Assembly (NCBI RefSeq): GCF_029510815.1
Contig: NZ_CP120360.1
Location: forward strand, 248,001-312,000
Direction: 5' to 3'
Length of the DNA: 64,000 nucleotides
Source: Janibacter sp. DB-40
Lineage (GTDB): Bacteria; Actinomycetota; Actinomycetes; Actinomycetales; Dermatophilaceae
In this document: piece by piece, positions 13,525 to 51,726 of the stretch
Layout of the letters: the number at the start of each line of letters is the position of its first letter
Numbering within the stretch: position 1 is the first letter of the stretch
Program-made: the position numbers and the translations under genes
The notes under the pieces: generated by a model
Database searches by the model: none
Told to the model about the DNA's origin: nothing
The model's input: only the letters and a program-made list of their open reading frames with translations

Positions 13525-16500
13525 TTACCCGTCAGGTAGCGTCACATGGCGTTTGCCCTTCCCTTTGCGACTGCGGACCAAGTGCGCCCTGGATAGGCGC
13601 GCCAACACGATCTCGAGTGCTTCGTCGTCTGGAACCTCGAACTTGCTCTGTGCGTGACTAGCAAAGTTGTCGTAAGGCGCTGGGAGCTTTCCGAGGATGC
13701 TCATGGTGGTGGTGGCATCAAGGTCGGCACTGGCCAGTAGCGGGATCGTCGTGTCGGGATCCCTCGTGACAGTGACGATGCGGACGATCTGCTCAGCGGT
13801 CAAGTGTGTTGACGTACGGACCGCGTAGCGAGCAACGGCGCGAAGAGCGTCCGAGTCGTCGTCGTTGACGTAGGCATCAAGTTCGTTCAGGATGCGCATC
13901 TTTGTGCTAAGCGGTATGTGTGTGCTGTCGAGAGCCTCGACGACAAAGCCGGAGAGCACCTCGGGTGAGGCGATGGCGGCGACGTCCTCGGCCGCTGGTA
14001 ATGCGCTGTTGAGAGTATCCCAGCCAGCATCACGATACGCCAGAAACACTTCCTGTGACTCCGCCACCAGCTGATGCTTTAGAAGAAGCCGCAAGAGGTC
14101 ACCTTCCTCGACCGGAAGCGCGTCGACCGAGAGGGGGTCTTGGAGTTCAAGGCTGAGCACAAGCTCGGCTCGTGTACTCGGCGACGGGAGGACGTCGTTC
14201 GCTTGGAGAATGACGATGGCCGCGGATTCCCGAGTTTCCTGATCATCGTCCGCAGATGTAGATAGCCGACCCGCGCCTGTCAAGAGATCGGCAAGGGGCT
14301 CGTCCAACGAGCCCTTCTGCTTTAGGTAGGTCTGGAAGTTGTGCAAGGAAACCTCGACGAGATGGTGAGAAGCGAGTCCCGCCCACATTGAAGGGGGGGC
14401 CAAATTGAAGCTCGCCAACTTGGTTGTGGGGGCCACGCCCTGGAGGAGCCTGTCGATTTGGTCAGAGGTCCAAGTTTCAGATACCTGTCCGAGCGTGAAC
14501 TCCAACGTGCTGGACCGCTCTACGATGTGGGGCGTATGCACGTCAGAATCCAGTGCGTCGAGGAAGCTGTCGGGTTCGTCAATGCAGTAGCTCAGCACCG
14601 GCCCGAGCTTCGTGTCTTCAAGCTCTTGCCTGTCAACGACCTCGAGCCCCTCGTTCTCGATTATGGTGTCGATCGACACCGATCCTGTTGTTTGCAGTGC
14701 GTGCCGGAGATTGTCTGCCGTCATCTGGTAGAGGTGGGCTTCCACCATGGCTTCACAAGCAGCACCGGACAAGTAATGAAGCTCGGGGATCACGATCTGC
14801 GAGCGTCGAAGCACGGCGAGCGCACTTTGTGTAGCGACCTCGCTGCGATCCTCGGTTAGGCTGGTCAGTTGTGGGTAGTTGCCAACGAGGTAGTCTCTGA
14901 AGGACTTGTTTAATTCGTAGGTATGTTTGCGCTCGGCGTTACTCAGCGCTGTGTCGAGTAGTGGAATGCGGCGATCGTCCGGCACGCTGGGGTCCTCTGC
15001 CAGATGAGCGAAAACGCGGGTCCATCGCTTCTGCGCGAGCCTTGCTATCAACCGGCCTGGGGCCGTGCTTGAGTTGAGAAAAGTGCTGAGGAACGCGGAT
15101 GCATCGGTGGTCGGGTCGTCGAGGGCGCAACCAGTCATTATGTGTTTCACAACACTATCGGCTCCGGCCGGGTCGTTGTCGAGGAGGTACTCGAGTACGG
15201 AGACGTTTAGTGCGGCGTGTGAGTTGACGAAGTCGCTCGGTGCGTCATGCAGGAGTGCCTCAACCTGGGGGTACGTGAATTGCTGATGCATGTCAGGCGT
15301 GTTGGTGTATACATTGTGAACGAGGTATCGGTCAACCTCTACACCCGCCGAGTGTCCCCGATACTGGGTGGCGTACAGAGTGAAGTTTCTGTCGATATAG
15401 CCGTGCCGTATGAGGTCGCGCGAAAGAGATGACTCGATCGTCTCTTCCAATATTTCTTTGAAGTTCTTGGGTTCCTCAGAAGTGGTTGTGAGCGTGAAAC
15501 GCGGAGCCTGCACCAAGTCCTCGAAACTCGCTCCGCGAAGAAACCGAAGATCAGAGTCTATTTGATCTTGCTGCTCACTGACCTCCCTCGCGTGGGCCTC
15601 GCTCCATTTGACCGAAAGAACACCTGGCAACAGAGCTTTTATGGCTTCCTCGCCCAAAGACAGTTGCTTTAGTCCGTATGGCGGAGAATTTCGGGTGACC
15701 GTTAGTCTTGGGTGTGCCTTGAGAGCTTCCCAAAAATCATCGGTCGAGAGTGCCTCTGAATCGTACGTCGTGTCGTTGACTCCGAAAGATATTGTGGATT
15801 GCGGTGCCCTATGGTCGTGCGGAATCGACTCGGCGAGGAGGGTCAAGTGCCCTGCGGCGCGTTCGGCCGCCACTGAGTGGCGCTCTGACGACAAGCGATT
15901 GCTGATGATCTCTCGTTTTTTGGCTTCCAGATGCGCAACGTTTTGCCTTATTAGCTTGCGCCTGCTCTCGATCAGGCTGTCGAGCGAGCTGTTACCTCGT
16001 GATATGCGCTCAAAATTCTTGAGGTGGAAGTTTTTGAATGCAACGAGTGCGAAGATCTTGGAACTCGTAATCCCCGGTGCGGCATGCATGCGAGCGGCAG
16101 CAGTCGCTGGACCGGTCGGTGTCTCTGTGGCGTCCCCGTTGACCTGAAGACGTTCCGCAAAGACTCTGTATTCGTTGCAAATGTTGCGCAGCAGCCTCAT
16201 GTCTGTCACGTGACGGGCCACAGTCTCCAGCAGGCGAGGTTCGATGGTTTCGATGCGATGGGCCTGTAATTCTTCAAGGAGGATCCGATGGGAGTTCATA
16301 TGTGATATGAAAGGCACGATCGGTATGACTACATCAAAAAACTTGGTCCGGTTGGCCCGTTCCAATCCGTCGCTTATTCGCGCATCTGAATTTGATGCGC
16401 GCGTCCTGCCAATTTCTTCGAAGAGACTGTCCTTGATCGCATAAATGAAGCGAGTCACGTGCTGTGGGGTCTGATCCCTGGAGTTGAGCAGGGTGTTTAG

Positions 16501-17265
16501 CTCCCGAAGCTCCTCGAAGATCTGTACGTTATCGAACCGGTCCAAGTCTTCAAAGATTACATAATTGGGCCTTGTGCGGTCGAAGAAGTAGACGAGTTCG
16601 TCGAGGTACTCGTCGAAATAGGTTGTATTTCGTGAAAGTTTGAGTGCAGCGCCCCCAGCGCCGACGTCAGTTACTTCACGTCCATCGACAGCAAGCCAAG
16701 CCCAAGCGGTCAGCGTCGTCAAGAGTGCCAACATGATCACCCACCCTGAAGCGGCGATCCAGCCATTTTCTGCTTCCACGGTGACGGGCGTCGGTAGCCA
16801 ACCCACAGTAAGGAGCAGCACCATGGCGGCGCTCACCAGCGCGAAGGACTTCCCTACGATAGGCCAGTAGTTGGGGTCGGCGATGCGGTCGAAGCGTGAG
16901 CGAGGCAAGCGGAAAGGCGCGACCTTGTACAGGAGCTGCTTGACCACCTCCTTTTGCAGGCGGTTCGTCAAGTCGTAGTCGTTCGGCTCCGGTCCGAGGG
17001 TTGATATTCCAACGCGAATCGTTTCACCGGGGTGCGTGCGTTCGAACTCTTGTAGCACACTCGACTTGCCTGTGCCGTAACTGCCGGTCAGGGCGATGTT
17101 GCGGTTGGTCTGTTCCTTGACCTGTTCGTTCAGGTGACGCAGGTAGGTGCCGTGCTCTTGCAGATTGAAGCGAGGAGCCAGGGATAGAAGACTTGGGGAG
17201 GCTGTCTCCGGCTGCACTTGTTGGGGGGCATGTGGACGGGGGTTGGATCGTCCGGGAGCGGTCAT
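13525..17265 (-). CDS. KAP/YobI-like P-loop NTPase with membrane segments
   Basis: This very large (1246 aa) ATPase has Walker A GSYGTGKSS at about residues 61-69 and a Walker B of the KAP/YobI form, YVIFEDLDRFDN, near 238-249. Two hydrophobic segments (around 138-160 and 170-195) are inserted between the two motifs, as in KAP NTPases, which anchor the ATPase at the membrane. The remaining 850 residues are helical with no known domain that I recognise. Proteins of this group are suspected STAND-like signal or phage-sensing ATPases, and many lie in defence islands. The gene is clearly AT-richer than its neighbours, with rarer codons (AGT, TTG, CTT), indicating transfer. It is the first gene inside the left repeat. 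Confidence 0.7.
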   Translation of the reverse strand: MTAPGRSNPRPHAPQQVQPETASPSLLSLAPRFNLQEHGTYLRHLNEQVKEQTNRNIALTGSYGTGKSSVLQEFERTHPGETIRVGISTLGPEPNDYDLTNRLQKEVVKQLLYKVAPFRLPRSRFDRIADPNYWPIVGKSFALVSAAMVLLLTVGWLPTPVTVEAENGWIAASGWVIMLALLTTLTAWAWLAVDGREVTDVGAGGAALKLSRNTTYFDEYLDELVYFFDRTRPNYVIFEDLDRFDNVQIFEELRELNTLLNSRDQTPQHVTRFIYAIKDSLFEEIGRTRASNSDARISDGLERANRTKFFDVVIPIVPFISHMNSHRILLEELQAHRIETIEPRLLETVARHVTDMRLLRNICNEYRVFAERLQVNGDATETPTGPATAAARMHAAPGITSSKIFALVAFKNFHLKNFERISRGNSSLDSLIESRRKLIRQNVAHLEAKKREIISNRLSSERHSVAAERAAGHLTLLAESIPHDHRAPQSTISFGVNDTTYDSEALSTDDFWEALKAHPRLTVTRNSPPYGLKQLSLGEEAIKALLPGVLSVKWSEAHAREVSEQQDQIDSDLRFLRGASFEDLVQAPRFTLTTTSEEPKNFKEILEETIESSLSRDLIRHGYIDRNFTLYATQYRGHSAGVEVDRYLVHNVYTNTPDMHQQFTYPQVEALLHDAPSDFVNSHAALNVSVLEYLLDNDPAGADSVVKHIMTGCALDDPTTDASAFLSTFLNSSTAPGRLIARLAQKRWTRVFAHLAEDPSVPDDRRIPLLDTALSNAERKHTYELNKSFRDYLVGNYPQLTSLTEDRSEVATQSALAVLRRSQIVIPELHYLSGAACEAMVEAHLYQMTADNLRHALQTTGSVSIDTIIENEGLEVVDRQELEDTKLGPVLSYCIDEPDSFLDALDSDVHTPHIVERSSTLEFTLGQVSETWTSDQIDRLLQGVAPTTKLASFNLAPPSMWAGLASHHLVEVSLHNFQTYLKQKGSLDEPLADLLTGAGRLSTSADDDQETRESAAIVILQANDVLPSPSTRAELVLSLELQDPLSVDALPVEEGDLLRLLLKHQLVAESQEVFLAYRDAGWDTLNSALPAAEDVAAIASPEVLSGFVVEALDSTHIPLSTKMRILNELDAYVNDDDSDALRAVARYAVRTSTHLTAEQIVRIVTVTRDPDTTIPLLASADLDATTTMSILGKLPAPYDNFASHAQSKFEVPDDEALEIVLARLSRAHLVRSRKGKGKRHVTLPDG

Positions 17266-17491: not shown

Positions 17492-17837
17492 TCAGCCCGC
17501 GGATGCGTGAGTCGAGGGGCAAGGTCTGCGGTCCCCAGGTCGAAGAGACGCCAGGGCCAGTTCGCTAGCGATCTCGCCCTCGTTTCGCACGACTGACCAC
17601 AAGCGGGCCCAGTCACCGTCTCCTGGATGAAAACCACCACACAGGTGACCGCGCGGAAACGACCGCAGTTTGGCGTGACTGGCGCTGGGTGTACGCGAGG
17701 ACCTCAACATCAGTCGAGTCGGGGTGAATCCCAACGAGTCCGTCATCATGCTCGTCCACATAGGCGTGGCGAATGACGAGGGTCTCGGTCGGGTCAATCC
17801 CGGCCGAAGCCATGATGGCACCGAATGTGAGGGTCAT
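17492..17837 (-). pseudogene. Frameshifted remnant of a hypothetical nuclease-associated protein
   Basis: The N-terminal part (start 17837) reads TLTFGAIMASAGIDPTETLV, then IRHAYVDEHDDGLVGIHPDS, which I recognise as the N-terminus of an actinobacterial family often annotated as GIY-YIG nuclease-like. The frame breaks near 17650, and a different frame continues with GDWARLWSVVRNEGEIASEL, which belongs to the same family. After that the similarity stops, so the gene is both frameshifted and truncated. Its ATG overlaps the stop of the GIY-YIG/DUF4357 gene (ATGA), so it was once the second gene of that operon. The 225 bp between this remnant and the NTPase gene hold nothing that I can identify. 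Confidence 0.6.
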
Positions 17838-18793
17838 CCGCCGTCACCCGTGGAGAGTTGGTGGCCGCCTTCCCACGCTGCGTACGTCGCACCGTCTTCA
17901 CGCGTCCATGCCACGCGTCCGTTGATGGAGACCGTTCCCAGGCAGATGGCGCCGGCGGCGGAGGGAGAGGAGAAGGCCACGTCTCTGGTCAGACTGCCGC
18001 TGCCGTCGCTGCCTGCTTCGATGGATCCGTCCTGGACGAGTTGGCCGTGTTGCGACTGGCGCAGTTCGTACTGCCGGGCTGAGCTTGGGCTGTAATCGTC
18101 CCGGTCGGGCATGACCGCACGCACTCGTGATCCGGCAAGGACGGTGAACTCTCCGTCGATGACCTGCGCCTTGGCATCGACACCCTTGCTGGCCTGGCGG
18201 AGATAGAACGTCGGCGACTCGGTCGGCGCCGCTTGCGCCGGGGAGCCTGCGGCCGCGGGAGGCGCTCCAACCTGCGGCGTGCGGGTTTCGCGGCCACGGA
18301 AGACGTCGACACCCAGGACGGGCAGGACGACCCGAAGCTGTTCGATGAAGTACTCCATGTCCGAGGCGTCGGCCTCCGGCAGGTCGGCTCCACCGGTGGG
18401 CTCGTTCCCGTTCTCCAGGGGCACGCGACCGATGGCTTTGGCCAGGCGGACGAGCCGAGCCTCGAGATAGCGCACGTGAGCACTGGTGAGATTCATGTCC
18501 TTGGAGGTCACGATCGCCACATCGGTCCAGAAGTCCTTCTGGATGTCGTGATGCTGCAGACGCTTGGCCACGTCGTCGCTCTGCCCGACGTAGGCCAGCC
18601 GACCACCGCTGTCGGGGTCCTCGCCCAACAAGATGTAGACACCCGTCCTGTGGGACTCAGCGCGGCGACGGATTTCCCCCAACTTCTCCCGAGAGCCCTT
18701 CAGCACGTGACCCGTCCAGTTGACGATCTCCGCCGTGATCAGACCCCCTGCGGTCCCATCGACCAAGAACAGACGAAGCTGCTTGCCAACCAC
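17834..18793 (-). CDS. GIY-YIG nuclease with C-terminal DUF4357
   Basis: This is a 319-aa nuclease. The GIY-YIG core is present as GVYILL at residues 51-56 and LAYVGQS at 66-72, with the catalytic Arg in DVAKRLQ (about 78) and the metal-binding Glu in RYLEARLVRL (about 112). A linker rich in Ala/Pro (about 175-200) leads to a C-terminal DUF4357 domain ending with AFSSPSAAGAICLG and SINGRVAWTRED. Such fusions are found in restriction and mobile-element contexts. It begins the two-gene unit that ends in the frameshifted remnant. Whether it restricts foreign DNA or serves as a homing-type enzyme cannot be decided from sequence. The 289 bp upstream have no gene. Confidence 0.85.
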   Translation of the reverse strand: MVGKQLRLFLVDGTAGGLITAEIVNWTGHVLKGSREKLGEIRRRAESHRTGVYILLGEDPDSGGRLAYVGQSDDVAKRLQHHDIQKDFWTDVAIVTSKDMNLTSAHVRYLEARLVRLAKAIGRVPLENGNEPTGGADLPEADASDMEYFIEQLRVVLPVLGVDVFRGRETRTPQVGAPPAAAGSPAQAAPTESPTFYLRQASKGVDAKAQVIDGEFTVLAGSRVRAVMPDRDDYSPSSARQYELRQSQHGQLVQDGSIEAGSDGSGSLTRDVAFSSPSAAGAICLGTVSINGRVAWTREDGATYAAWEGGHQLSTGDGG

Positions 18794-22776: not shown

Positions 22777-23268
22777 TCAGGCGGAATCTGCGGCGACCTT
22801 CTCCCGCGCGGTCTTGAACAGGTCGGCGCGCTCGGCCCGGATGAGGTAGCGGCCAATGCCGTCCTCGTCCTCGTAGAAGTAGGTCGGGAGGCCGCGGCTG
22901 ATCTTCGCGCCGTGGCGGCCCGGCCAGGCCAGGACGCCCGCGATGCCGTGGGCGCCGTTCTTGACCCCGATCTTCTCGGCGATCTCATCCCCGGTGTAGG
23001 GGGTGTCGGGGTCGTCCATGAGGAGCGAGAACATGGCCCGCGCCTGCGGCGAGTACTTCCGCCATAGGGTCAGGGCGTCCGCGTAGTCCTCCGCGGTGGT
23101 TCCCCAAGGAACGCGGGGCTTCGGGGGCTCAAGGGCCTCTGCCGGGTCCCCCTCGGGGCTCTGAGGGGTATTGGAGGAGAGGCTGAGCGAGCCAGCGAGC
23201 CAGAGACCGAAGAACTGGTAGAACTCGGCGGTGCGGTCGTTGGGGACGGGGACGGTGATGTCGGCCAT
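22777..23268 (-). CDS. Hypothetical actinobacterial protein, DUF6416-like
   Basis: This 163-aa soluble protein contains a helical N-terminus (FYQFFGLWLAGS), an acidic/proline linker (SPEGDPAEALEPPKP) and a C-terminal winged-helix-like part: LTLWRKYSPQARAMFSLLMD, TGDEIAEKIGVKNGAHGIAG, VLAWPGRHGAKISRGLP. This pattern resembles a conserved actinobacterial family of unknown function, tentatively DUF6416. The ATG at 23268 is chosen over the one at 23361, because the longer version reads through promoter-like DNA. The AT-rich region upstream contains the palindrome TATTG-ACC-CAATA. A role as a transcription factor is possible but not shown. Confidence 0.62.
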   Translation of the reverse strand: MADITVPVPNDRTAEFYQFFGLWLAGSLSLSSNTPQSPEGDPAEALEPPKPRVPWGTTAEDYADALTLWRKYSPQARAMFSLLMDDPDTPYTGDEIAEKIGVKNGAHGIAGVLAWPGRHGAKISRGLPTYFYEDEDGIGRYLIRAERADLFKTAREKVAADSA

Positions 23269-23350
23269 GACGGCTTCCTTTGGTTGGTGCATCCCCGAGC
23301 GGGGTGCGTAGAACAAGTATGCACTCCCTACAGAGGGAAGTAAAGAAGTA

Positions 23351-23363
23351 TATTGACCCAATA
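23351..23363. promoter_or_regulatory. Palindrome in promoter of the 22777 gene
   Basis: TATTG-ACC-CAATA is a perfect 5-3-5 inverted repeat inside an AT-rich stretch (23315-23385) that stands out from the GC-rich surroundings. It is placed about 85 bp upstream of the gene on the minus strand. It probably holds the promoter and an operator. Confidence 0.45.
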
Positions 23364-24121: not shown

Positions 24122-25090
24122 TTAGGGGTTGGTGTGCAGCGCGATGGTTTCGTTGATCGCTGCGGCCGTCATCGTCGCGGTTTCTGCGATCTGTTCGCGC
24201 ATGCGGTCGAGGAGTTCCATGATCTCTTGGGCAGCTTCGTCGCTGAGGCCCTCATCCAGCGGTTCGTACTGGTGGCGTGCCATGTGGGCCTCGATGGCCG
24301 TGATCCGGGCGGCCGTGTCGGGCAGTTCCGGCTGGTTGCGCAGGTAGTCGTCGTAACGCACTTGGCCTTTGGCGGTGTTGCAGTCGCGACAGGCCGGCAC
24401 GAGGTTGCCGAGCCGGTGCTCACCCAAGGCCTTCTTGATCAGGGTCTTGTTGCCAGGCGTCTTGATCCGGATGCTGATCGGCACGGCGTGGTCCATCACC
24501 AGTTGTCGCCCGCTGCTGCAGTAGACGCAACGGTGACCGAATGAGGCCTTGACCGTCAGCCAGTCCTTCTGAGTGAAGGATTCCTGGCCCAGCCGGCCCA
24601 GGACGTTTCGTACCGCGGAGTTCTGCGCGTTGCCGATGGCGTGCACCTTGTGCCGGGCGCCGCTTGGCGAACCGGACTCTGTTGCGGCCGCCGTTGCTGG
24701 CGGTGGGGGTGGGGGCGTGGTGATCTCGGTCAGTTGGGTGTCGAAGGCATCGCTGGAGATGCCAACAGGCGTCAGACCCTTCTCGGCCAGGTACAGCAGG
24801 AAGTGCTCGCGATGATTCTTCCGCTCCACCCAATGGTTGGTGACTCGGACCTCGTGGTCGAGCACCTGGTAGACGGGGGCCCAGTATCGGTCCTTGCCGT
24901 TCTTGTCCTGCTGCCGGATCAGTTCGGCCTCGGCCGGTGTCGCCAAGAAGGCCCAGTTGAGGTTGAAGACTTCGTTGCAGTACTCCTTGTCGGAGAGCTT
25001 GGTGATCTCTTCCGGGTCGTACTGAGCGCAGTGCTCGAAGATCTGCGGCAGGTTGTCTCGGACGAGTTGTCCGATCAGGGGCTCTTCCAT
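24122..25090 (-). CDS. HNH endonuclease
   Basis: This 322-aa protein has a C-terminal HNH nuclease domain. A zinc pair CVYC is at residues 188-191, the catalytic DHAVP at about 201-205, LGNLVPACRDCN at about 227-238 and its Cys pair at 234/237. The N-terminal half is a helical region of unknown role with an Asn/Trp-rich patch (NLNWAFLATPAEAELIRQQ), then a proline run and linker (about residues 130-150). The ATG at 25090 has an AAGGAG site; the longer frame upstream covers the promoter. It is divergent from the FHA-like gene, and a perfect 20-bp palindrome lies 75 bp upstream. HNH enzymes of this type act as restriction or toxin nucleases; the target is unknown. Confidence 0.8.
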   Translation of the reverse strand: MEEPLIGQLVRDNLPQIFEHCAQYDPEEITKLSDKEYCNEVFNLNWAFLATPAEAELIRQQDKNGKDRYWAPVYQVLDHEVRVTNHWVERKNHREHFLLYLAEKGLTPVGISSDAFDTQLTEITTPPPPPPATAAATESGSPSGARHKVHAIGNAQNSAVRNVLGRLGQESFTQKDWLTVKASFGHRCVYCSSGRQLVMDHAVPISIRIKTPGNKTLIKKALGEHRLGNLVPACRDCNTAKGQVRYDDYLRNQPELPDTAARITAIEAHMARHQYEPLDEGLSDEAAQEIMELLDRMREQIAETATMTAAAINETIALHTNP

Positions 25091-25164
25091 GAGGACTCCT
25101 TGGGTGACGGCGGCGGGTGCCACGAGGTGTTGCAGGCGACAGTAGCGAGACAGGCGCACGTGGT

Positions 25165-25184
25165 GGGGTTACCCGGGTAACCCC
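25165..25184. promoter_or_regulatory. Perfect 20-bp palindrome, copy 1 (operator candidate)
   Basis: GGGGTTACCCGGGTAACCCC lies between the divergent HNH gene (start 25090) and the FHA-like gene (start 25211). Its inner 18 bp recur exactly at 25907-25924. The position suits an operator controlling both promoters. Confidence 0.65.
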
Positions 25185-25210
25185 GCCGCTGGGCTGACTA
25201 CCATCACGTC

Positions 25211-25921
25211 ATGGAGTGTCTCTACGACGGCAGGGTGAGGTTGAAGGTCGCCGGCGCGGTGCGTGGCACGTGGGCCCTGCCGACGGACGACGAGGTATCC
25301 GTGGGGCGAGTGTCCGGGGCCGGGATCCACATCCCCAACCGGTGGGTGCCGGAGCACCTGTGCCGGTTCCTGCCCTACGAGCAGGGCTGGTTGCTGCAGC
25401 TGGGGCGGGCGCGGGCGCGAGTGCTCAACAAGTACCTCGACGACATCACTTTCAACCCTCGCGCGGTCATCGCGTTGCAGCCCGGACGGACCAAGGTCTG
25501 GTTCCCGGAGCTGGACGATCTGTGCCGGATGGACGTGGTCATCGGCGCCGGCCAGGCCCAAGGGTTGCCAGTGGCCGAAGACCAAGAAGTCGTCGGTGAG
25601 CGCTCGCGTACCTCCTATGCCGCCTACCGGATCAACTTGACCCCCCTGCAACGTCAGCGGTTGGCGGTTGCCTTCGAGCACCTGCTGAAGGATCAGCGCC
25701 CGCCGGCGAATATCGCGGCCACGGCCGCTGCAAAGCTCGGCACGAGCGAGCAGGTGGTCAAGAAGGTGCTCGCCGAGACGAAGGAGAAGGTCAACCGCGA
25801 GCGGTGGCTCAACCTCGAGACCACCGAGCAGCTCGGCCACTACCTGGTCCGCCTCTCGCGCAACCTCATGTGGGACGACCTGCCTCCACAGTTCCGGGAC
25901 AGCGAGGGGTTACCCGGGTAA
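25211..25921 (+). CDS. FHA-like domain protein with C-terminal helical (HTH-like) region
   Basis: The N-terminal 115 residues follow the forkhead-associated pattern: SVGRVSGAGIHIPN (GR at 32-33), a V-x2-H at 46-49 (WVPEHLCRF), then GWLLQLG at 59-65 and a following loop with ...VLNKYL and LQPGRTKVWF. Such domains bind phosphothreonine. The usual Ser after GR-x(n) and the SRxH signature are altered (VPEH), so phosphopeptide binding is uncertain. Residues 150-230 are helical and resemble winged-helix regulators (LTPLQRQRLAVAFEHLL, AAKLGTSEQVVKKVL). It is therefore a candidate regulator for its neighbours. The last three codons and the stop are part of the second palindrome. The start ATG is 26 bp after the first palindrome. 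Confidence 0.6.
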   Translation: MECLYDGRVRLKVAGAVRGTWALPTDDEVSVGRVSGAGIHIPNRWVPEHLCRFLPYEQGWLLQLGRARARVLNKYLDDITFNPRAVIALQPGRTKVWFPELDDLCRMDVVIGAGQAQGLPVAEDQEVVGERSRTSYAAYRINLTPLQRQRLAVAFEHLLKDQRPPANIAATAAAKLGTSEQVVKKVLAETKEKVNRERWLNLETTEQLGHYLVRLSRNLMWDDLPPQFRDSEGLPG

Positions 25922-25924
25922 CCC
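25907..25924. promoter_or_regulatory. 18-bp palindrome, copy 2 (operator candidate)
   Basis: GGGTTACCCGGGTAACCC is identical to the core of the palindrome at 25165-25184. It covers the stop codon of the FHA-like gene and lies 71 bp before the ARPP-1-like gene, so it could control the downstream operon. Confidence 0.65.
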
Positions 25925-25995
25925 GGTCAAGACCTCGCTGGTGTGCATGCTCCTGTCATCGGTCCACTGGGGACTGAGGAGATGGGAGTTTGGTC

Positions 25996-26919
25996 ATGAA
26001 CGAACTGCACGTAGGACGCGGCACGACCCGCGGAGCGATGACGGTCTTCCCGCTGTGGGGCCAAGCTGGCCGCTACCGGCGGTACACGATCGGCGGCGGC
26101 AGCGATCTGGACGTCACCGAGGTGGTCGAGGACGGCCCGCGGGTGGACACGCTGATGGTGGACAACCCGGGTGATCGGCCGGCGCTGGTGCTGGAGGGGA
26201 CGTTGTTCGAGGGCGGGTGGCAGCACCGCATGGCCTGCCACTCGGTGATGGTCGGGGTGCACCAGCGCATCCCTGTTGAGGTGGCGTGTGTCGAGCAGGG
26301 CCGGTGGGGCGGGACCTCGCGCCAGAACACCAAGGGACGGCGGGCCACGCCGTATGTGCGCGACAGCGGGCGCCGTGGCGGCGACGTGCAGGGAGAGGTG
26401 TGGAACCGGGTGGCGGTGCACACCCAGGACGTGGGCGTGCCCACTCCCGGGCGCCGGTTGTCGCACTCGGACCTGCACTGGGTGCGCCACACGCCCCCTC
26501 CGGGCAACCCGACCGCGTCCTTCGTCCACCGCTTGGACCGCGCGCAGGATGAACGAAAGGCGTGGTCGAGCCTGCGGGCGCTGCCCGGGCAGATCGGGGT
26601 GCTGATCGGCATCAGTGGTCAGCCCTACATCGCCGAGGTGTTCGACTTCCCCAGCCGGCTGCGCAGGCAGCTGCCGGGCCTGCTGGAGGCGGCCGCCCTG
26701 GACGCCCGGGGCATGCCGACTATCGCCACGCCCTCGCGTCGGGCCCACCGATTCATCGACCGGCTCGAGCACGTGAAACTCACCCAGGTCGCGCCCGCCG
26801 GCGTCGCCGAACGCTTCAGCGGTGCTAACGAGTACGCCGACATGAGCAGGCTGCGGTGGCAGGGCCAGGACGTCCACGCCCGGATGACCAACGTCAACCA
26901 CCCGATGCTCGCCGGCTGA
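25996..26919 (+). CDS. ARPP-1-like protein (partner of ADP-ribosylglycohydrolase)
   Basis: This 307-aa soluble protein resembles the ARPP-1 family (ARG and rhodanese/phosphatase-superfamily-associated protein). The recognisable parts are LMVDNPGDRPALVLEGTLFE and GGWQHRM near residues 53-75, IPVEVACVEQGRW at about 93-105, a central basic/Gly-rich loop (GRRATPYVRDSGRRGGDVQG) and LPGQIGVLIGISGQPYIAEVFDF near 195-217. Such proteins are typically encoded beside ARG and phosphatase genes, exactly as here, and their biochemical role is not known. An in-frame TTG at 25990 is an alternative start; the ATG has GGGAG at proper distance. The ARG-phosphatase gene follows after 13 bp, so the two are co-translated. 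Confidence 0.68.
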   Translation: MNELHVGRGTTRGAMTVFPLWGQAGRYRRYTIGGGSDLDVTEVVEDGPRVDTLMVDNPGDRPALVLEGTLFEGGWQHRMACHSVMVGVHQRIPVEVACVEQGRWGGTSRQNTKGRRATPYVRDSGRRGGDVQGEVWNRVAVHTQDVGVPTPGRRLSHSDLHWVRHTPPPGNPTASFVHRLDRAQDERKAWSSLRALPGQIGVLIGISGQPYIAEVFDFPSRLRRQLPGLLEAAALDARGMPTIATPSRRAHRFIDRLEHVKLTQVAPAGVAERFSGANEYADMSRLRWQGQDVHARMTNVNHPMLAG

Positions 26920-26932
26920 CGGGGTGGTAGCC

Positions 26933-28393
26933 ATGAGACTGACCTCTGCCCAGACAGACCGCGCCTGCGGCGTCCTCTTGGCCTCTGCTGTCGGTGACGC
27001 CCTGGGCGCCGGCTACGAGGTCGAATCCACCCCCTACGACGGATGGCCGATCATGGTCGGCGGTGGCTTGGGTGGTTTCGCGCCGGGGGAGTGGACCGAC
27101 GACACCGCCCAAGCGATGGCCATCGCCCACGTCGCTGCCACGGGGGTGGACCTGCGCACACCGGCCGCCCTCGATGCCGTCGCTGCCGGGTTCGCCCGGT
27201 GGTACGCCGAAGGCCCCTGCGATGTGGGGATGCAGACCGGCCAGGTGCTGCGCCTGGCCGGACCCGACACCACCGCCGAGACCATGACCGCCGTGGCGAC
27301 GCAGGTGCACCACCGCAACGACGGACGCTCTGCCGGGAACGGGTCGCTGATGCGCACCGGCCCGGTCGCCCTTGCCCACTTGGGGGATCCCGCCGCACTG
27401 GTCGAGGCAGCGCACAACATCTCCGCGCTGACCCACCATGACCCCATGGCAGGGGAGGGCGCCGCCCTGTGGTGCCTGATGATCCGCCACGCCGTTCTCC
27501 GCGGCGTGCTCCCCACCCCCGGTGATGTCCTGCCCCTGCTGGGGCAGACCACGTACGACTGGGCGGTCGTGCTCGCCGAGGCCGAGAACGGACCCCCATC
27601 CCGGTTCGTGGAGAACGGCTGGGTCGTCGGAGCGTTGCAGGCCGCTTGGTCGAGCATCGTGCACACACCGATACCGGAGGTCACGCCCTGTCGTCATCTG
27701 CAGGAGTCGTTGGCCACGGCCATTGGCATTGGCCACGACACCGACACCGTCGCGGCGATTGCCGGCGCGCTGCTCGGGGCGCGCTGGGGAGCCAGCGCCG
27801 TCCCCCAGGAATGGCAGGGCCAGCTGCACGGTTGGGGCATCCCCACCGACTTCGACCAGCACAGCGGTGGCGCGGCCGCGCTGACCGCGCTGGCGAGCCT
27901 CATGCTTCGCGGCGGCCAGAGGGACGCCCAGGGATGGCCCACCGCCCCCCGCATCGACTACACGGCCTGGGGAGTGGCCAGCACGTGCGTGCCGCACCCA
28001 CTCGTCGAGGGCGTATGGATCGGAAACGCACTGGCCTTGGACGACCTGCCGCCGGAAGTCGACGCGGTGGTCAGCCTCTGCCGCCTCGGAACAACGCAGA
28101 CCCCACCCGGCGCCGTGGCTCACGTCGCGCGCCTGATCGACTCGACAGCAGAGGACAACCCCAACCTCGACTTCGTCATCGACGACGCCGCCCGCACCGT
28201 TCTGCGACTACGCGACCAGGGACGAACAGTGTTCCTGTACTGCGTAGCCGGGCAGAGCCGCACACCCACCGTGGCAGCACGAGTCGCCGTCCTCGACGGT
28301 TCACCACTGGAACAAGCCCTACGCGAGATCACCGACTCCCTACCCGAAGCCAACCCGCAGTCCTGGTTGCTCGATGCCCTCCGCCGCTCCTGA
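26933..28393 (+). CDS. ADP-ribosylglycohydrolase fused to a Cys-based phosphatase domain
   Basis: Residues 1 to about 330 form an ARG (DraG-like) domain that removes ADP-ribose from substrates. GDALGAGYE is at 21-29, the metal site WTDDTAQAM at 54-62, RSAGNGSLMRTGP near 137-149 and GIGHDTDTVAAIAGALLGA near 265-283. After a linker, residues 345-486 form a dual-specificity phosphatase-like domain with the signature CVAGQSR (Cys437, Arg443), preceded by IDDAARTVLRLRDQGRTV. Length is 486 aa. The two activities in one chain suggest stepwise processing of an ADP-ribosylated or nucleotide-derived product. An in-frame GTG at 26924 is an alternative start. It is the last gene of the FHA/ARPP/ARG unit. 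Confidence 0.85.
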   Translation: MRLTSAQTDRACGVLLASAVGDALGAGYEVESTPYDGWPIMVGGGLGGFAPGEWTDDTAQAMAIAHVAATGVDLRTPAALDAVAAGFARWYAEGPCDVGMQTGQVLRLAGPDTTAETMTAVATQVHHRNDGRSAGNGSLMRTGPVALAHLGDPAALVEAAHNISALTHHDPMAGEGAALWCLMIRHAVLRGVLPTPGDVLPLLGQTTYDWAVVLAEAENGPPSRFVENGWVVGALQAAWSSIVHTPIPEVTPCRHLQESLATAIGIGHDTDTVAAIAGALLGARWGASAVPQEWQGQLHGWGIPTDFDQHSGGAAALTALASLMLRGGQRDAQGWPTAPRIDYTAWGVASTCVPHPLVEGVWIGNALALDDLPPEVDAVVSLCRLGTTQTPPGAVAHVARLIDSTAEDNPNLDFVIDDAARTVLRLRDQGRTVFLYCVAGQSRTPTVAARVAVLDGSPLEQALREITDSLPEANPQSWLLDALRRS

Positions 28394-45271: not shown

Positions 45272-48268
45272 TCAGCCGGCCCGTCCTCTGAACTCGTCGT
45301 AGGTGCCCCCGAGATACCCGAGCAGCATCTGCTTGAAGTCAAGGTTGGCGAAGAACTGGTTGAACAGCAGGTCGCCGTTCTTGTCGTGGCGTTGTAGCAG
45401 GAGACCCTTGATCTTCTCCTCGAGGACGAGTTCGAACTGGGAGCGGTCGTTGTATAGGGCGACGGCCTGCATCTCGTCGTCTTCCATGACGACGGTCCAC
45501 TGCTGGTCGAACCAGATCTTGTCGGCCTCGCCGAGGTCGGCGCCGTACTTCTCGTTCATCACGGCGATGAGCGCGGAGAGCTTGTCGAGCATCGGCTCAG
45601 TCGCCGAGCCCTTGCCCTCGCCTGGCAATGCCACGCCTGCCTCGTCGGCGCCCTCGAGGGCTATGGCTTCTTCTTCGCTGGTCACCGACAAGCGCAGGTG
45701 GGTCAGCTGGACGCTCTTGCTCAGCTGCGGCATCGGGTCCGACTCAGCAGCAGGCAGCTCAGTGAGCAGCAGCTTGCCGTAGAGGAAGAGCCGCTCCAGC
45801 GATGCATCTGCCCACGGCATGACCTGCGCGACGAAGGCGTACGCCCGCACGAAGCGCGTCAACGTCCCCCGGAAGGACTCCTGCGCGTCCTCATCAAGAC
45901 TGATGAACCGTCCGACCGCGGTGCTGACATTGCTGTAGATGGTCGGCTGCTGCTTCGGTTCGTCCGACAGCAGCGCGGTGGTGGCCGCGTCCATCTCGTC
46001 CAGCGACAACACGCCCGCGGACATCAGATCGTGCTCCATCGCGTAGAGGAGGTTCGGGTCTGTCGGCTGGGCCAGGGACTGCTCGTAGAACGGCTCGAAG
46101 GCCTCTTGGATCTCCTCGGCGGTGTTGGCGAAGTCCAGGACGAAGGTGTCCTCCTTGCCCGGGTGCGTGCGGTTGAGCCTGGAGAGGGTCTGCACTGCCT
46201 TGACCCCGGCGAGCTTCTTGTCCACGTACATCGTGTGCAGCAGCGGCTGGTCGAAGCCGGTCTGGTACTTCTCCGCGACGACGAGGACTTGGTAGTCCTC
46301 TTCGAAGCGCTTGGGCAGCTGAGTCTCGGGGAACCCGTTGAGCATCGCCTCGGTGTAGGCGACCTCTGGAGCGTCCGGGTCGGTGACCGTCCCGCTAAAG
46401 GCGACCAGGGCGCGAAGGGGGTGAGCGCCCGTGTCGTAACCCTTGCCCTGGATGTACTTGTCGATGGCTTCCTTGGTGCGCACCGCGTGCAGCCGGGAGC
46501 GGGTGACGACCATGGCCCGGGCCTGGCCGTCGATCTTGTGCGCGGCCTTTTGCCGGAAGTGCTCGACGATTACCTCGGCCTTGGCCTCCATCATGTATGG
46601 GTGCAGCGAGGCGAACCGCGCCAACGCCGCCCGGCCCTTGGCCGAGTCGATTTCCGGGTCCTCCCGCGGCGTGGCCGTCGCGAGCTTGTAGTACGTCGAG
46701 TAGGTCGTGTAGTTCTCCAGCACGTCGAGGATGAACCCCTCATCGATCGCCTGCCGCATCGAGTACGTGTGGAACGGGACCTTCACCCCATCGGCGTTGG
46801 TCTGCCCGAAGGTCTCCAGGGTCTTCGGTTTCGGCGTAGCGGTGAAGGCGAAGTAGGACAGGTTCGACTGCTTCCCCCGGTTGCGCGCCGACTCCAGCAA
46901 CGCATCATCTGGCGCCTCCCCGGCCTCGACCTCCGCCTCAGCGGCTTCGGCTTCAGCCAAGGCGTCGTCCCCGGTGGCGAGCACATTCTTCAGCTTCTTC
47001 ATCGAGTCGCCAGTGGTGGAGGAGTGGGCCTCGTCGACGATGACCGCGAAGCGTCGTCCCGCGATGCCCTTGGCTTCACCCTCAGCGGCCTCCTCGGCGG
47101 CAAGCTTCGCGACGACGGGGAACTTCTGCAGCGTCGTGATGATGATGCGCGCCCCGTGCCCGGACAGGGCGTCCTTGAGCTGGTCGGATTTCTGGTCTAT
47201 GCGCACGATCGTGCCCGGTGTGTGATCCAAGCCCGCGATGGTGTCCTGCAGTTGCCGGTCGAGGACGCGGCGGTCGGTGATGACGATGACCTTGTCGAAG
47301 ATCGGCTGGTCTCCGGGGTCGTGCAGCCGGGAGAGGGAGTGCGCGGTCCAAGCGATGGTGTTGGACTTGCCCGACCCTGCCGAGTGCTGGATCAGCCGGT
47401 CCACGCCAGGACCGTCCGCGTACGTCGCGGCCAGGATCGAGCGGACCGCGTGCCACTGGTGGAACCGGGGGAAGAGCACTCGTCCGTTCTCGGCGTGGAT
47501 GAAGAGCTGCAGCAGCTCCAGCCACGCGTCCTTGTCCCAGACCTGCTCCCACAGGTAGGCGGACTGGTAGCCCTCGCTCGGTGGGTTGCCCGCTGCACCG
47601 GGAAGGCCCGGACCGGCGGTGCCTTGGTTGAACGGCAGGAAGCGTGTTGCTTCGCCCGCGAGCTTGGTGGTCATCGCGACCTGGTGCGGGTCGACCGCGA
47701 AGTGCACCAGCGTGCGCTTGGCGAAGATCCGATCATGCGGGTTCCGGTCGGTGCGGTATTGGTGCATCGCTTGCGCCAGCCCTTGCCCGGTCAGCGGGTT
47801 CTTCAGCTCCGCCGTGGCCACCGGCACCCCGTTGACCACCAGCACCAGATCCAACGAGTCCGCCGGGTGGGACTCCGAATGGTGTAGCTGCCTCACCACC
47901 GTGCACCGGTTCGCCTCGTACTGCTGTTGAAGTTCGGGGGTCAGGGTGTTGGCCGGCCTGAACCAGCACATTCGCAGTGTGACGCCCGAGTCCTTGACCT
48001 TCCCACGAAGCACGCTGATCGTGCCCCGGTGGTTTATTGCGTCCGCGACGACCTTGACGAGCCGTTGGCGCGCCGTCGATTCCCCGCCGTGGCGGGTTAC
48101 GAGCATGTTCCACGCCTTCGGTTGGGACTCCTGGACGAAGGCGATGACCTCGTCCGGGAACAGCCCCAGATCCCGGTCATATAACGAAGGGGGAATCGTC
48201 CCCCACCCATTCGTCGTTAGGTGGGTCTCGATGTTGCCCTCGAAGGCCGCTTCGGTCGTGTTGCTCAC
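45272..48268 (-). CDS. hsdR: Type I restriction endonuclease subunit R
   Basis: This is the 998-aa motor and nuclease subunit that translocates and cuts unmodified DNA. The N-terminal nuclease has the PD-(D/E)xK core SLDLVLVVNGVPVATAELKN (Glu and Lys of ELK). The helicase part has Walker A HSAGSGKSNTIAW, motif II VIVDEAHSS, motif III-like FAFTATPKP, and VAEKYQTGFDQPLLHTMYVD with LSRLNRTHPGK further on. Length is usual. Translation starts with GTG at 48268, 5 bp after hsdS, so it is the third gene of the hsdM-hsdS-hsdR operon. No frameshift was seen; the enzyme looks intact. Confidence 0.95.
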   Translation of the reverse strand: MSNTTEAAFEGNIETHLTTNGWGTIPPSLYDRDLGLFPDEVIAFVQESQPKAWNMLVTRHGGESTARQRLVKVVADAINHRGTISVLRGKVKDSGVTLRMCWFRPANTLTPELQQQYEANRCTVVRQLHHSESHPADSLDLVLVVNGVPVATAELKNPLTGQGLAQAMHQYRTDRNPHDRIFAKRTLVHFAVDPHQVAMTTKLAGEATRFLPFNQGTAGPGLPGAAGNPPSEGYQSAYLWEQVWDKDAWLELLQLFIHAENGRVLFPRFHQWHAVRSILAATYADGPGVDRLIQHSAGSGKSNTIAWTAHSLSRLHDPGDQPIFDKVIVITDRRVLDRQLQDTIAGLDHTPGTIVRIDQKSDQLKDALSGHGARIIITTLQKFPVVAKLAAEEAAEGEAKGIAGRRFAVIVDEAHSSTTGDSMKKLKNVLATGDDALAEAEAAEAEVEAGEAPDDALLESARNRGKQSNLSYFAFTATPKPKTLETFGQTNADGVKVPFHTYSMRQAIDEGFILDVLENYTTYSTYYKLATATPREDPEIDSAKGRAALARFASLHPYMMEAKAEVIVEHFRQKAAHKIDGQARAMVVTRSRLHAVRTKEAIDKYIQGKGYDTGAHPLRALVAFSGTVTDPDAPEVAYTEAMLNGFPETQLPKRFEEDYQVLVVAEKYQTGFDQPLLHTMYVDKKLAGVKAVQTLSRLNRTHPGKEDTFVLDFANTAEEIQEAFEPFYEQSLAQPTDPNLLYAMEHDLMSAGVLSLDEMDAATTALLSDEPKQQPTIYSNVSTAVGRFISLDEDAQESFRGTLTRFVRAYAFVAQVMPWADASLERLFLYGKLLLTELPAAESDPMPQLSKSVQLTHLRLSVTSEEEAIALEGADEAGVALPGEGKGSATEPMLDKLSALIAVMNEKYGADLGEADKIWFDQQWTVVMEDDEMQAVALYNDRSQFELVLEEKIKGLLLQRHDKNGDLLFNQFFANLDFKQMLLGYLGGTYDEFRGRAG

Positions 48269-48273
48269 TCAAC

Positions 48274-49449
48274 TCACCCCGGGATGTTCGATCCAGCAGT
48301 CGACGCGTCCAACTCACCCGAAACCGCTGCCGTGATCAATGACGACTTGTACTCGCTCAGCAGATCAATCGAGGCGCCCAGATGTATGGAACCAGCAGTA
48401 CCGTGGCTCAACAGGTGATCCCATTCGGCAACAAGTTGGACCTGCGTGTCCATCTCTGGCGCCCAAGCGGCGAAGGAACGTACGGACTCGTTATTGAGGA
48501 TCGGCAACGTGGAGGCGGGAGCAGACTGACGCAACTCGTCGCTGCGGGCATTCAACTGATGTAGGAGGAACCGGCCCTTCATCAGTTCTGGACGAGTCTT
48601 GATGTAGGTGAGTTGCTGATTGCCAGAGGCCTCATGGTCGAGCCAAGCGACTTTGCCGGCGGTAGCACCAATAGCAACGAGCAGCACGCTTTCCGCTTCA
48701 AATCGCACGCCCATACTTGAACGTATACGGCGCACTGGTGCACCGATTTGGAGGTCTCCCTCGAAGGACGCAGGCGAGTACCAAGGAAGCCCCTCGGCAG
48801 AGTCTGCCTCCTCGCCCGGGGTCCCACCTGTTTGGACATTGCTTACCAGTCGACGCATTGGCACGAGATCCCCTTCGGCGCAAGCCGCTGACACCTTCGC
48901 CTTCAAGACGTCTGCTGCTATGTCCATCTGCTCGCGGCGGGCGGCGATGATTCGATCGATCCGGGAGACCTGGTCGTCGAGGAAGTCCGCGATCCGCCGC
49001 TGCTCCTCGGGTGCGTAGTCGGCAACTCGAAAGCTATTGACGAACTCTGGGGGCACACGCTGAAGGCCAGCAACCCCTTGGAATGCGGTCACACCCTCGT
49101 CGAGGAAGTGCTTGCTGCGCACGGCGTAGCAGAGCCACCGAGCATCGACACCTTCGCGTGGACGCAGGATGTGAAGCTCTGTCGTTCCTGCACCAACCGA
49201 TCGGGTCACCATCGAACGGCCAGCCTGGAAGGTGGGCGTTACCTTGGGGCACACAACGTCCCCAATTCGGAAGCGCGTGTAGCCGGTCGCCACGTCCGAC
49301 TTTGGCACCAATCGATCGTGGTCTGCCCGGGAGTCACTCCAAACCGTTTCGAGCGGCAGAAATGTCACCGGCTCGCCAGCCGGGATGCGATCAAACTCTG
49401 GCGTGCTCGGGTTCAGATCAGCTAGATGGCGCAGCGGGACGGTCCTCAC
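48274..49449 (-). CDS. hsdS: Type I restriction-modification specificity subunit S
   Basis: This 391-aa DNA recognition subunit has two target recognition domains, each followed by a conserved helical region. The first TRD begins RHLADLNPSTPEFDRI. The first conserved region is APEEQRRIADFLDDQVSRID, then RIIAARREQMDIAADVLKAK. The second TRD starts PMRRLVSNVQTGGTPGEE, and the second helix ends LLSEYKSSLITAAVSGELD. The GTG start at 49449 overlaps the stop of hsdM (GTGA). The longer frame upstream to 49602 lies inside hsdM and is rejected. The recognised sequence cannot be predicted from this. Confidence 0.92.
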   Translation of the reverse strand: MRTVPLRHLADLNPSTPEFDRIPAGEPVTFLPLETVWSDSRADHDRLVPKSDVATGYTRFRIGDVVCPKVTPTFQAGRSMVTRSVGAGTTELHILRPREGVDARWLCYAVRSKHFLDEGVTAFQGVAGLQRVPPEFVNSFRVADYAPEEQRRIADFLDDQVSRIDRIIAARREQMDIAADVLKAKVSAACAEGDLVPMRRLVSNVQTGGTPGEEADSAEGLPWYSPASFEGDLQIGAPVRRIRSSMGVRFEAESVLLVAIGATAGKVAWLDHEASGNQQLTYIKTRPELMKGRFLLHQLNARSDELRQSAPASTLPILNNESVRSFAAWAPEMDTQVQLVAEWDHLLSHGTAGSIHLGASIDLLSEYKSSLITAAVSGELDASTAGSNIPG

Positions 49450-51419: not shown

Positions 51420-51726
51420 CTTTCTCCCTTGCATTAGAGCGTGTGATGGTCACCATACGGGTCAACAGACTTGGGCTGCTGGGTGCAGCGGAGGCTGTAG
51501 CGCGGCACCGACTTCAGTCGCTTGTAACGGTTTCGTCACGAGGCGAAGCGCCGATTGCGCGACGTTTCGAACCTCGAACCGTGAAGGGTATGAAGTCTGA
51601 GACCCGCCCCACGCCCCCGCGCCCCGTCGAGCCTCGTGCCCTACATCTCCGAACCCTGCATGATGAGGACAGTCCTACCTGTAATCTCTCGCCTGGGGTT
51701 TTCTTGGTTGGTTCTTCCCAGGGTTT

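What the first reader, a model, noticed from the sequence alone, without database searches (positions are those of the whole stretch)
24122..28393. HNH / FHA-like / ARPP-1-like / ARG-phosphatase gene set: candidate conflict or repair system
Four neighbouring genes encode an HNH nuclease (divergent), an FHA-like protein with a possible HTH, an ARPP-1-like protein and an ADP-ribosylglycohydrolase fused to a Cys-phosphatase. ARG plus phosphatase plus ARPP is a known but uncharacterised gene association. Adding an FHA-like regulator and a nuclease suggests a switch that senses a phosphorylated or ADP-ribosylated signal and answers with DNA or RNA cleavage and repair. No ADP-ribosyltransferase is encoded nearby, so the substrate may come from a phage or toxin.
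Basis: partly seen in the sequence, partly recalled or inferred. Interest (0 to 1): 0.85.

Follow-up and report, generated by a model that had tools for sequence, protein, structure and literature searches.

The report
FHA-regulated nuclease and ADP-ribose-removal switch
Four neighbouring bacterial genes form a recurring defence-like module in which an unusual FHA regulator, probably acting through two copies of a DNA palindrome, seems to control both a DNA-cutting enzyme and enzymes that remove ADP-ribose marks.

The parts
24122..25090 (-). HNH endonuclease (322 aa from ATG at 25090), divergent from the operon; separate N-terminal domain (about residues 1-125) plus HNH domain
25165..25184 (.). 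Site O1: perfect 20-bp palindrome GGGGTTACCCGGGTAACCCC in the HNH/FHA divergent promoter region (intergenic 25091-25210)
   Evidence: 18-bp core found twice in the window at up to 3 mismatches, 0.00 expected; 16-bp core at only two places in the genome at up to 2 mismatches, reversed-pattern control 1 place
25211..25921 (+). FHA-like regulator: degenerate FHA domain (about 1-118) plus helical, probably HTH, C-terminus (about 145-215)
25906..25925 (.). Site O2: GGGGTTACCCGGGTAACCCG, overlapping the FHA stop codon and encoding its C-terminal GLPG
25990..26919 (+). ARPP-1 (PF20208; called DUF6569 in the plasmid record), likely start ATG 25996
   Evidence: 169 bits, only match in the genome; C100 and Q78 invariant in 12 aligned
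26924..28393 (+). ADP-ribosylglycohydrolase fused to a Cys-phosphatase, likely start ATG 26933
   Evidence: PF03747 159 bits, DSPc 17 bits below its cut-off; GDALG, TDDT, SAGNG..MR, DTDT and C-x5-R motifs intact

Best explanation
This is an ARG-centred anti-ADP-ribosylation module under an FHA-HTH autoregulator. Shown by sequence: the FHA gene is fixed next to ARPP and ARG/phosphatase; two matched palindromes flank it, one before ARPP/ARG and one between it and the divergent nuclease. Inferred: a dimer of the FHA-HTH protein binds both palindromes and holds the nuclease, itself and the ARPP-ARG operon at low expression. When an outside ADP-ribosyltransferase (phage or rival toxin) marks cell molecules, a phosphate-bearing product (ADP-ribose or a derivative freed by ARG) binds the arginine-rich, remodelled FHA pocket and releases the DNA. 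ARG and phosphatase then strip and process ADP-ribose, ARPP acts on the sugar product, and the HNH nuclease cuts invader or host DNA as a second line.
For: FHA beside ARG in 16 of 16 loci, ARPP in 15 of 16. The palindrome core is at only two places in the genome, both here. Left-out-locus scoring ranks the pre-ARPP/ARG site first in 13 of 16 loci of 6-22 kb, second in 2, third in 1; the site before FHA ranks 1-4 in 8 loci, all with a divergent HNH or PD-(D/E)xK-type gene, and 17 or worse in the other 8. Within a locus O1 and O2 match better than shuffled pairings: 6 of 40320 as good. A distant relative (L041, 30% identity) in another gene context has an 8-of-9 palindrome at its FHA stop, 63 bp before the next ATG; it is the best-scoring site in those 20 kb. 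NrtR-type genes stand divergently before ARPP in 5 loci without FHA; none of the 32 sequences examined has both. HNH relatives sit by ARG/phosphatase with an Xre-type gene in L072, L073. Catalytic motifs intact.
Against: No binding, expression, ligand or phage data. The HTH identity of the C-terminus rests on predicted helices and weak Pfam matches (best 0.0082). The profile alignment behind the pocket comparison is weak (probability 23% local, 2% global). O1 is missing in L037 despite a divergent PD-(D/E)xK gene, and both sites are weak in L038. Background sites score up to 14.1 in FHA loci, so the pre-ARPP sites of L027, L028, L037 and L038 stand out by position, not score. Those sites were located with a motif-guided finder before scoring, and several loci are close relatives. 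No recognised nuclease adjoins FHA in several loci. ARPP was seen without ARG in 8 of 14 class genomes.
Confidence: 0.55

Rival explanations
1. The FHA domain still reads a phosphorylated protein: a Ser/Thr kinase signal, with the fused phosphatase as eraser, switches the regulator.
For: FHA fold is clear; Arg33 of the GR motif is invariant in 32 of 32; a Cys-phosphatase is encoded in the operon. The distant relative L041 keeps the Ser.
Against: In a (weak) profile alignment to FHA domains of the same genome the usual phosphothreonine-contact Ser is Pro in 32 of 32, the His is Leu in 32 of 32, and the Asn of NG is Arg in 31 of 32. L037 keeps FHA but its ARG lacks the phosphatase part. The regulator found in its place elsewhere is of NrtR type.
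Confidence: 0.15
2. The module counters ADP-ribosylating toxins of rival bacteria, or tunes the cell's own ADP-ribose chemistry, rather than phage; the nuclease is a fail-safe or unrelated.
For: ARG, ARPP and phosphatase act on the modification, not the attacker (inference from family); nothing seen here is specific to phage.
Against: Divergent nucleases recur beside the regulator and share its site; the window holds a type I restriction set, and restriction-like genes were read by eye near several sister loci.
Confidence: 0.2
3. The HNH gene is only a neighbour in a defence island and not part of the switch.
For: HNH adjoins FHA in only 2 of 16 FHA loci; HNH relatives occur without an ARG seen nearby (L108; and L074 for its N-terminal domain).
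Against: O1 lies in the HNH/FHA promoter and, among 16 loci, is seen only where a divergent nuclease stands; all 3 full-length HNH relatives among 215 genus genomes adjoin ARG/phosphatase; in the protein searches 6 contig lengths are shared by HNH and FHA relatives, one of them read.
Confidence: 0.12
4. The palindromes are not operators but the nuclease's recognition sites, attachment sites or hairpins in RNA.
For: They are perfect, restriction-site-like palindromes.
Against: They occur in loci with different nucleases or none recognised, placed before ARPP/ARG, and both copies of a locus change together; no terminator-like match at the sites.
Confidence: 0.05

Closest known systems
ARG-centred host systems predicted to counter viral ADP-ribosylation (PMC9503650, section 3.8)
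   Same: ARG, rhodanese-phosphatase-superfamily phosphatase, ARPP, optional nucleases/helicases/Macro, an HTH regulator, no coupled transferase
   Different: Regulators described there are Nudix or WYL; 'FHA' and 'forkhead' do not occur in its text, and its one HNH mention concerns phage SLOG fusions. Here an FHA-HTH regulator has mapped palindromes that also cover the nuclease promoter
NrtR-type Nudix regulators of ARPP loci (L040, L089, L093, L094, L096)
   Same: Divergent, before ARPP (in L093 with one ORF between); sensor domain fused to a DNA-binding domain
   Different: Different sensor fold; no best-scoring FHA-type palindrome lies before ARPP there, only one of background strength (7.3) in L094
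EmbR-type FHA transcription regulators (architecture recalled; EmbR appears among the fold hits)
   Same: FHA domain joined to a DNA-binding part
   Different: Here FHA is N-terminal, the helical part C-terminal, and the usual phosphothreonine contacts are not kept
McrA / Cas9-type HNH nucleases
   Same: HNH fold with two CxxC pairs
   Different: Own N-terminal domain without an assigned fold (that part was barely tested)

Membership tests
ARG-centred anti-ADP-ribosylation system (PMC9503650) | ARG domain, no coupled transferase | tested here: met
   Catalytic motifs intact in 16 of 16 ARG proteins examined (15 FHA loci and L040); no transferase among 19 window ORFs scanned, not exhaustive
ARG-centred anti-ADP-ribosylation system (PMC9503650) | Phosphatase of the rhodanese-phosphatase superfamily, fused or adjacent (a little over 55% there) | tested here: met
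   Sub-threshold DSPc match and C-x5-R in the window; C-x5-R in 15 of 16 examined, absent in L037
ARG-centred anti-ADP-ribosylation system (PMC9503650) | ARPP with conserved Cys and Gln (optional component) | tested here: met
   C100, Q78 invariant in 12 aligned
ARG-centred anti-ADP-ribosylation system (PMC9503650) | Nudix or WYL regulator (over 42% of described systems, so not obligatory) | tested here: not met
   Regulator is FHA-HTH; no NrtR-type match by tblastn in the window or the other 15 FHA loci; WYL was not searched
ARG-centred anti-ADP-ribosylation system (PMC9503650) | Removes ADP-ribose; protects from phage | not testable with these tools
   Needs the bench
FHA domain, phosphothreonine-binding | FHA fold | tested here: met
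FHA domain, phosphothreonine-binding | GR, SxxH and NG pocket motifs (roles recalled) | tested here: not met
   GR kept; Ser to Pro, His to Leu, Asn to Arg by a weak profile alignment
HTH transcription regulator | HTH fold and cognate operator | tested here: inconclusive
   Predicted helices 145-215; weak Pfam matches; operator-like sites strong; no binding data
HNH endonuclease | HNH motif with catalytic His/Asn and zinc cysteines | tested here: met

The most novel reading that the evidence does not exclude
An FHA domain has been converted from a phosphothreonine reader into a sensor of ADP-ribose or a related phosphorylated sugar and, joined to an HTH, forms a third class of regulator for host systems that undo foreign ADP-ribosylation, releasing a nuclease and the repair enzymes together from two matched operators.
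Probability: 0.4. Interest if true: 0.85.

Novelty: new variant of a known kind. Interest (0 to 1): 0.66.

Why it matters
How bacteria detect foreign ADP-ribosylation is, in the one paper found on these systems, a prediction. Here the likely regulator, its DNA sites and the genes next to them are named, so sensing can be tested with one protein, one 20-bp DNA and a panel of ADP-ribose derivatives. It would also be an FHA domain turned from peptide to metabolite sensing, and it ties a nuclease to the de-ADP-ribosylation genes by shared control.

Tried and rejected
Canonical phosphothreonine reading: rejected as the main model. A first hhalign run included wrong-frame segments and was discarded. 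Site as terminator: no terminator-like match at the sites. HNH as fixed partner: rejected, HNH in 2 of 16 FHA loci. Regulon beyond the locus: no further sites in the own genome at up to 2 mismatches. ARPP search of genome contigs with a single sequence found nothing. No FHA relative confirmed in viral contigs.

Plain palindrome counting is weak by itself: of 15 loci tested against 300 shuffles each, the best palindrome was reached by no shuffle in 4 before ARPP/ARG and in 1 before FHA; 3 more before FHA were reached by 3-5 shuffles, and most of the less perfect sites were not beyond chance. The claim rests on shared motif, position and pairing. The Mantel test does not single out the HTH part: r 0.32 (HTH) and 0.35 (FHA) against site similarity, so it may reflect relatedness. 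A MarR-type Pfam match lies outside the helical part and was not counted as support. The N-terminal domain of the HNH protein got no fold assignment.

Left out: G155 (partial match, E 5e-4) was not followed; P0032 (different C-terminus) was not aligned; 31 of 35 genomes with matches confined to the HNH domain (E 1.8e-14 or weaker) were left out of the neighbourhood count. Literature: 4 of 12 paper searches answered (one search found 0 papers); searches failed by time-out. PMC3482391 was seen as a listing and start of abstract only.

Full report
OBSERVATION. Pfam gives HNH (27.9 bits, cut-off 21.4), ARPP-1 (169 bits) and ADP_ribosyl_GH (159 bits) with a sub-threshold DSPc match; the FHA-like ORF has no match over a cut-off. 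PADLOC lists nothing for the FHA, ARPP or ARG proteins and only weak HNH-type matches for the nuclease. The genome is one 3.35-Mb contig and ARPP occurs once in it. The window's ARPP protein found no match in 15 other genomes of the genus and 1 in all 38 other relatives, which suggests gain by transfer.

NEIGHBOURHOOD. This leaves 16 close-family loci: window, L027-L039, L008, L009. ARG lies downstream in 16 of 16, ARPP in 15 (not L009; in L030 its match changes frame near the end), and the phosphatase part in 15 (not L037; in L009 cut by the contig end). The distant L041 (G072, 30% identity) has neither within 20 kb. Directly upstream and divergent stand: HNH in the window and L031; a protein of about 640 aa in L008, L009, L034, L035, L036, L038 (weak, sub-threshold PDDEXK_4 match, tested in L008); a PDDEXK_1 protein in L037; and a 486-aa protein without Pfam match in L032. 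L039 has a DUF4268 protein and L029 a protein without Pfam match on the same strand; no adjacent nuclease was recognised in L027, L028, L030, L033 (part's output was cut). A Pimelobacter simplex plasmid carries the same arrangement.

NUCLEASE LINK. Full-length HNH relatives occur in 3 of 215 genus genomes (E 1.1e-64 or better); all 3 adjoin ARG/phosphatase: L031 with FHA and ARPP, L072 and L073 without a match to either but with an Xre-type gene next to the HNH (HTH_3 52 bits in L073; L072's judged alike by eye). A fourth hit (L074) is the HNH protein's N-terminal part joined to another C-terminus, with no ARG match in 20 kb. In the class sample only the own genome had a hit at E 1e-20 (1 of 394). 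A Vibrio plasmid relative has no ARG among the 17 features annotated around it, in an incomplete table. HNH and FHA relatives share six contig lengths in the protein searches (1850, 7368, 9044, 41507, 42027, 4264922); only the last contig was read (L031).

PALINDROMIC SITES. Upstream regions laid side by side showed a palindrome. In the window GGGTTACCCGGGTAACCC occurs twice at up to 3 mismatches, expected 0.00; in the whole genome its 16-bp core occurs at up to 2 mismatches only at these two places, against 1 for the reversed-pattern control. O1 (25165-25184) lies between HNH and FHA, 26 bp before the FHA start; O2 (25906-25925) overlaps the FHA stop, 70 bp before the ARPP ATG. Ten of 32 aligned family proteins end in LPG, the reading of this site. 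With matrices trained without the locus tested (close relatives kept), the pre-ARPP site (L009: pre-ARG) ranks 1 in 13 loci, 2 in 2 and 3 in 1 of 16; the best site before FHA ranks 1-4 in 8 loci and 17-534 in 8. Against gene content: O1 in 8 of 9 loci with a recognised divergent nuclease, 0 of 7 without (Fisher p 0.0014; loci not independent). O1 and O2 of one locus match at 16.4 of 18 positions against 13.5 over all pairings; 6 of 40320 permutations were as good. Against this: other sites in FHA loci score up to 14.1 (L033), so L027, L028, L037 (12.6-13.6) and L038 (9.2) are carried by position rather than score. Twelve control loci without a close FHA gene gave best scores of 4.9-11.9; none of these best sites lies just before ARPP, while L041's best (10.4) falls at its own FHA stop, 63 bp before the next ATG.

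REGULATOR SWAP. ARPP was found in 14 of 394 class genomes. In the stretches read: ARG/phosphatase in 6 (G000, G029, G119, G200, G219, G417); a stand-alone phosphatase-like ORF with C-x5-R, judged by eye, in 5 (G068, G086, G172, G351, G376); neither seen in 3 (G041 on a short contig, G166, G325). NrtR-type genes stand before ARPP in 5 (G029, G172, G200, G376, G417; NrtR_WHD over its cut-off in the 4 tested, G376 by tblastn), FHA in 2 (G000, G219), never both; the 16 FHA loci have no NrtR match by tblastn. The remaining 7 had neither by these searches.

MECHANISM. Shown: conserved unit, intact catalytic motifs, FHA fold with an altered pocket, paired palindromes. Inferred: the FHA protein binds them; it represses; its ligand is an ADP-ribose-type molecule, by analogy with the NrtR-type regulator in the same place and because of its arginines; the nuclease is an induced second line. 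PMC9503650 (section 3.8 read in full; passages elsewhere) proposes the same logic for Nudix and WYL versions and does not mention FHA.

NOVELTY. The core is published. The FHA-type regulator, its sites, the HNH and Xre variants and the shared nuclease site were not found in that paper or in the four paper searches that answered. Eight further searches failed, so this is a limited statement.

Noticed in passing
window 13525-17265 (-): YobI-type P-loop NTPase (327 bits) with a PADLOC Tmn match of 132 bits, in a stretch of lower G+C: a second defence candidate.
   Followed up: no
window 45272-51434 (-): Type I restriction-modification set: HsdR, HsdS, HsdM.
   Followed up: partly
window 17834-18793 (-): Protein with DUF4357 and a sub-threshold GIY-YIG match.
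   Followed up: no
window 22777-23361 (-): DUF6416 protein (78 bits) just beyond the module; not looked for in sister loci.
   Followed up: no
L007 11620-11919; matches in L029, L030, L094: A protein of about 90-99 aa without Pfam match sits between ARPP and ARG in several FHA loci and follows ARPP in an NrtR-type locus; ORFs of like size stand there in L008 and L035, relation not shown.
   Followed up: partly
L027, L028, L032, L036, L038, L039, L040, L072, L089, L093: NERD-UvrD helicase genes recur within about 10 kb of these modules, with a Macro gene in L027 and L028.
   Followed up: partly
L074 9071-9946: The N-terminal part of the HNH protein is joined to a different C-terminal part, suggesting a movable module.
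   Followed up: no
L041 1-3213: A distant FHA-HTH gene that keeps the Ser of the SRxH motif precedes two genes without Pfam match and has its own palindrome at its stop codon.
   Followed up: partly
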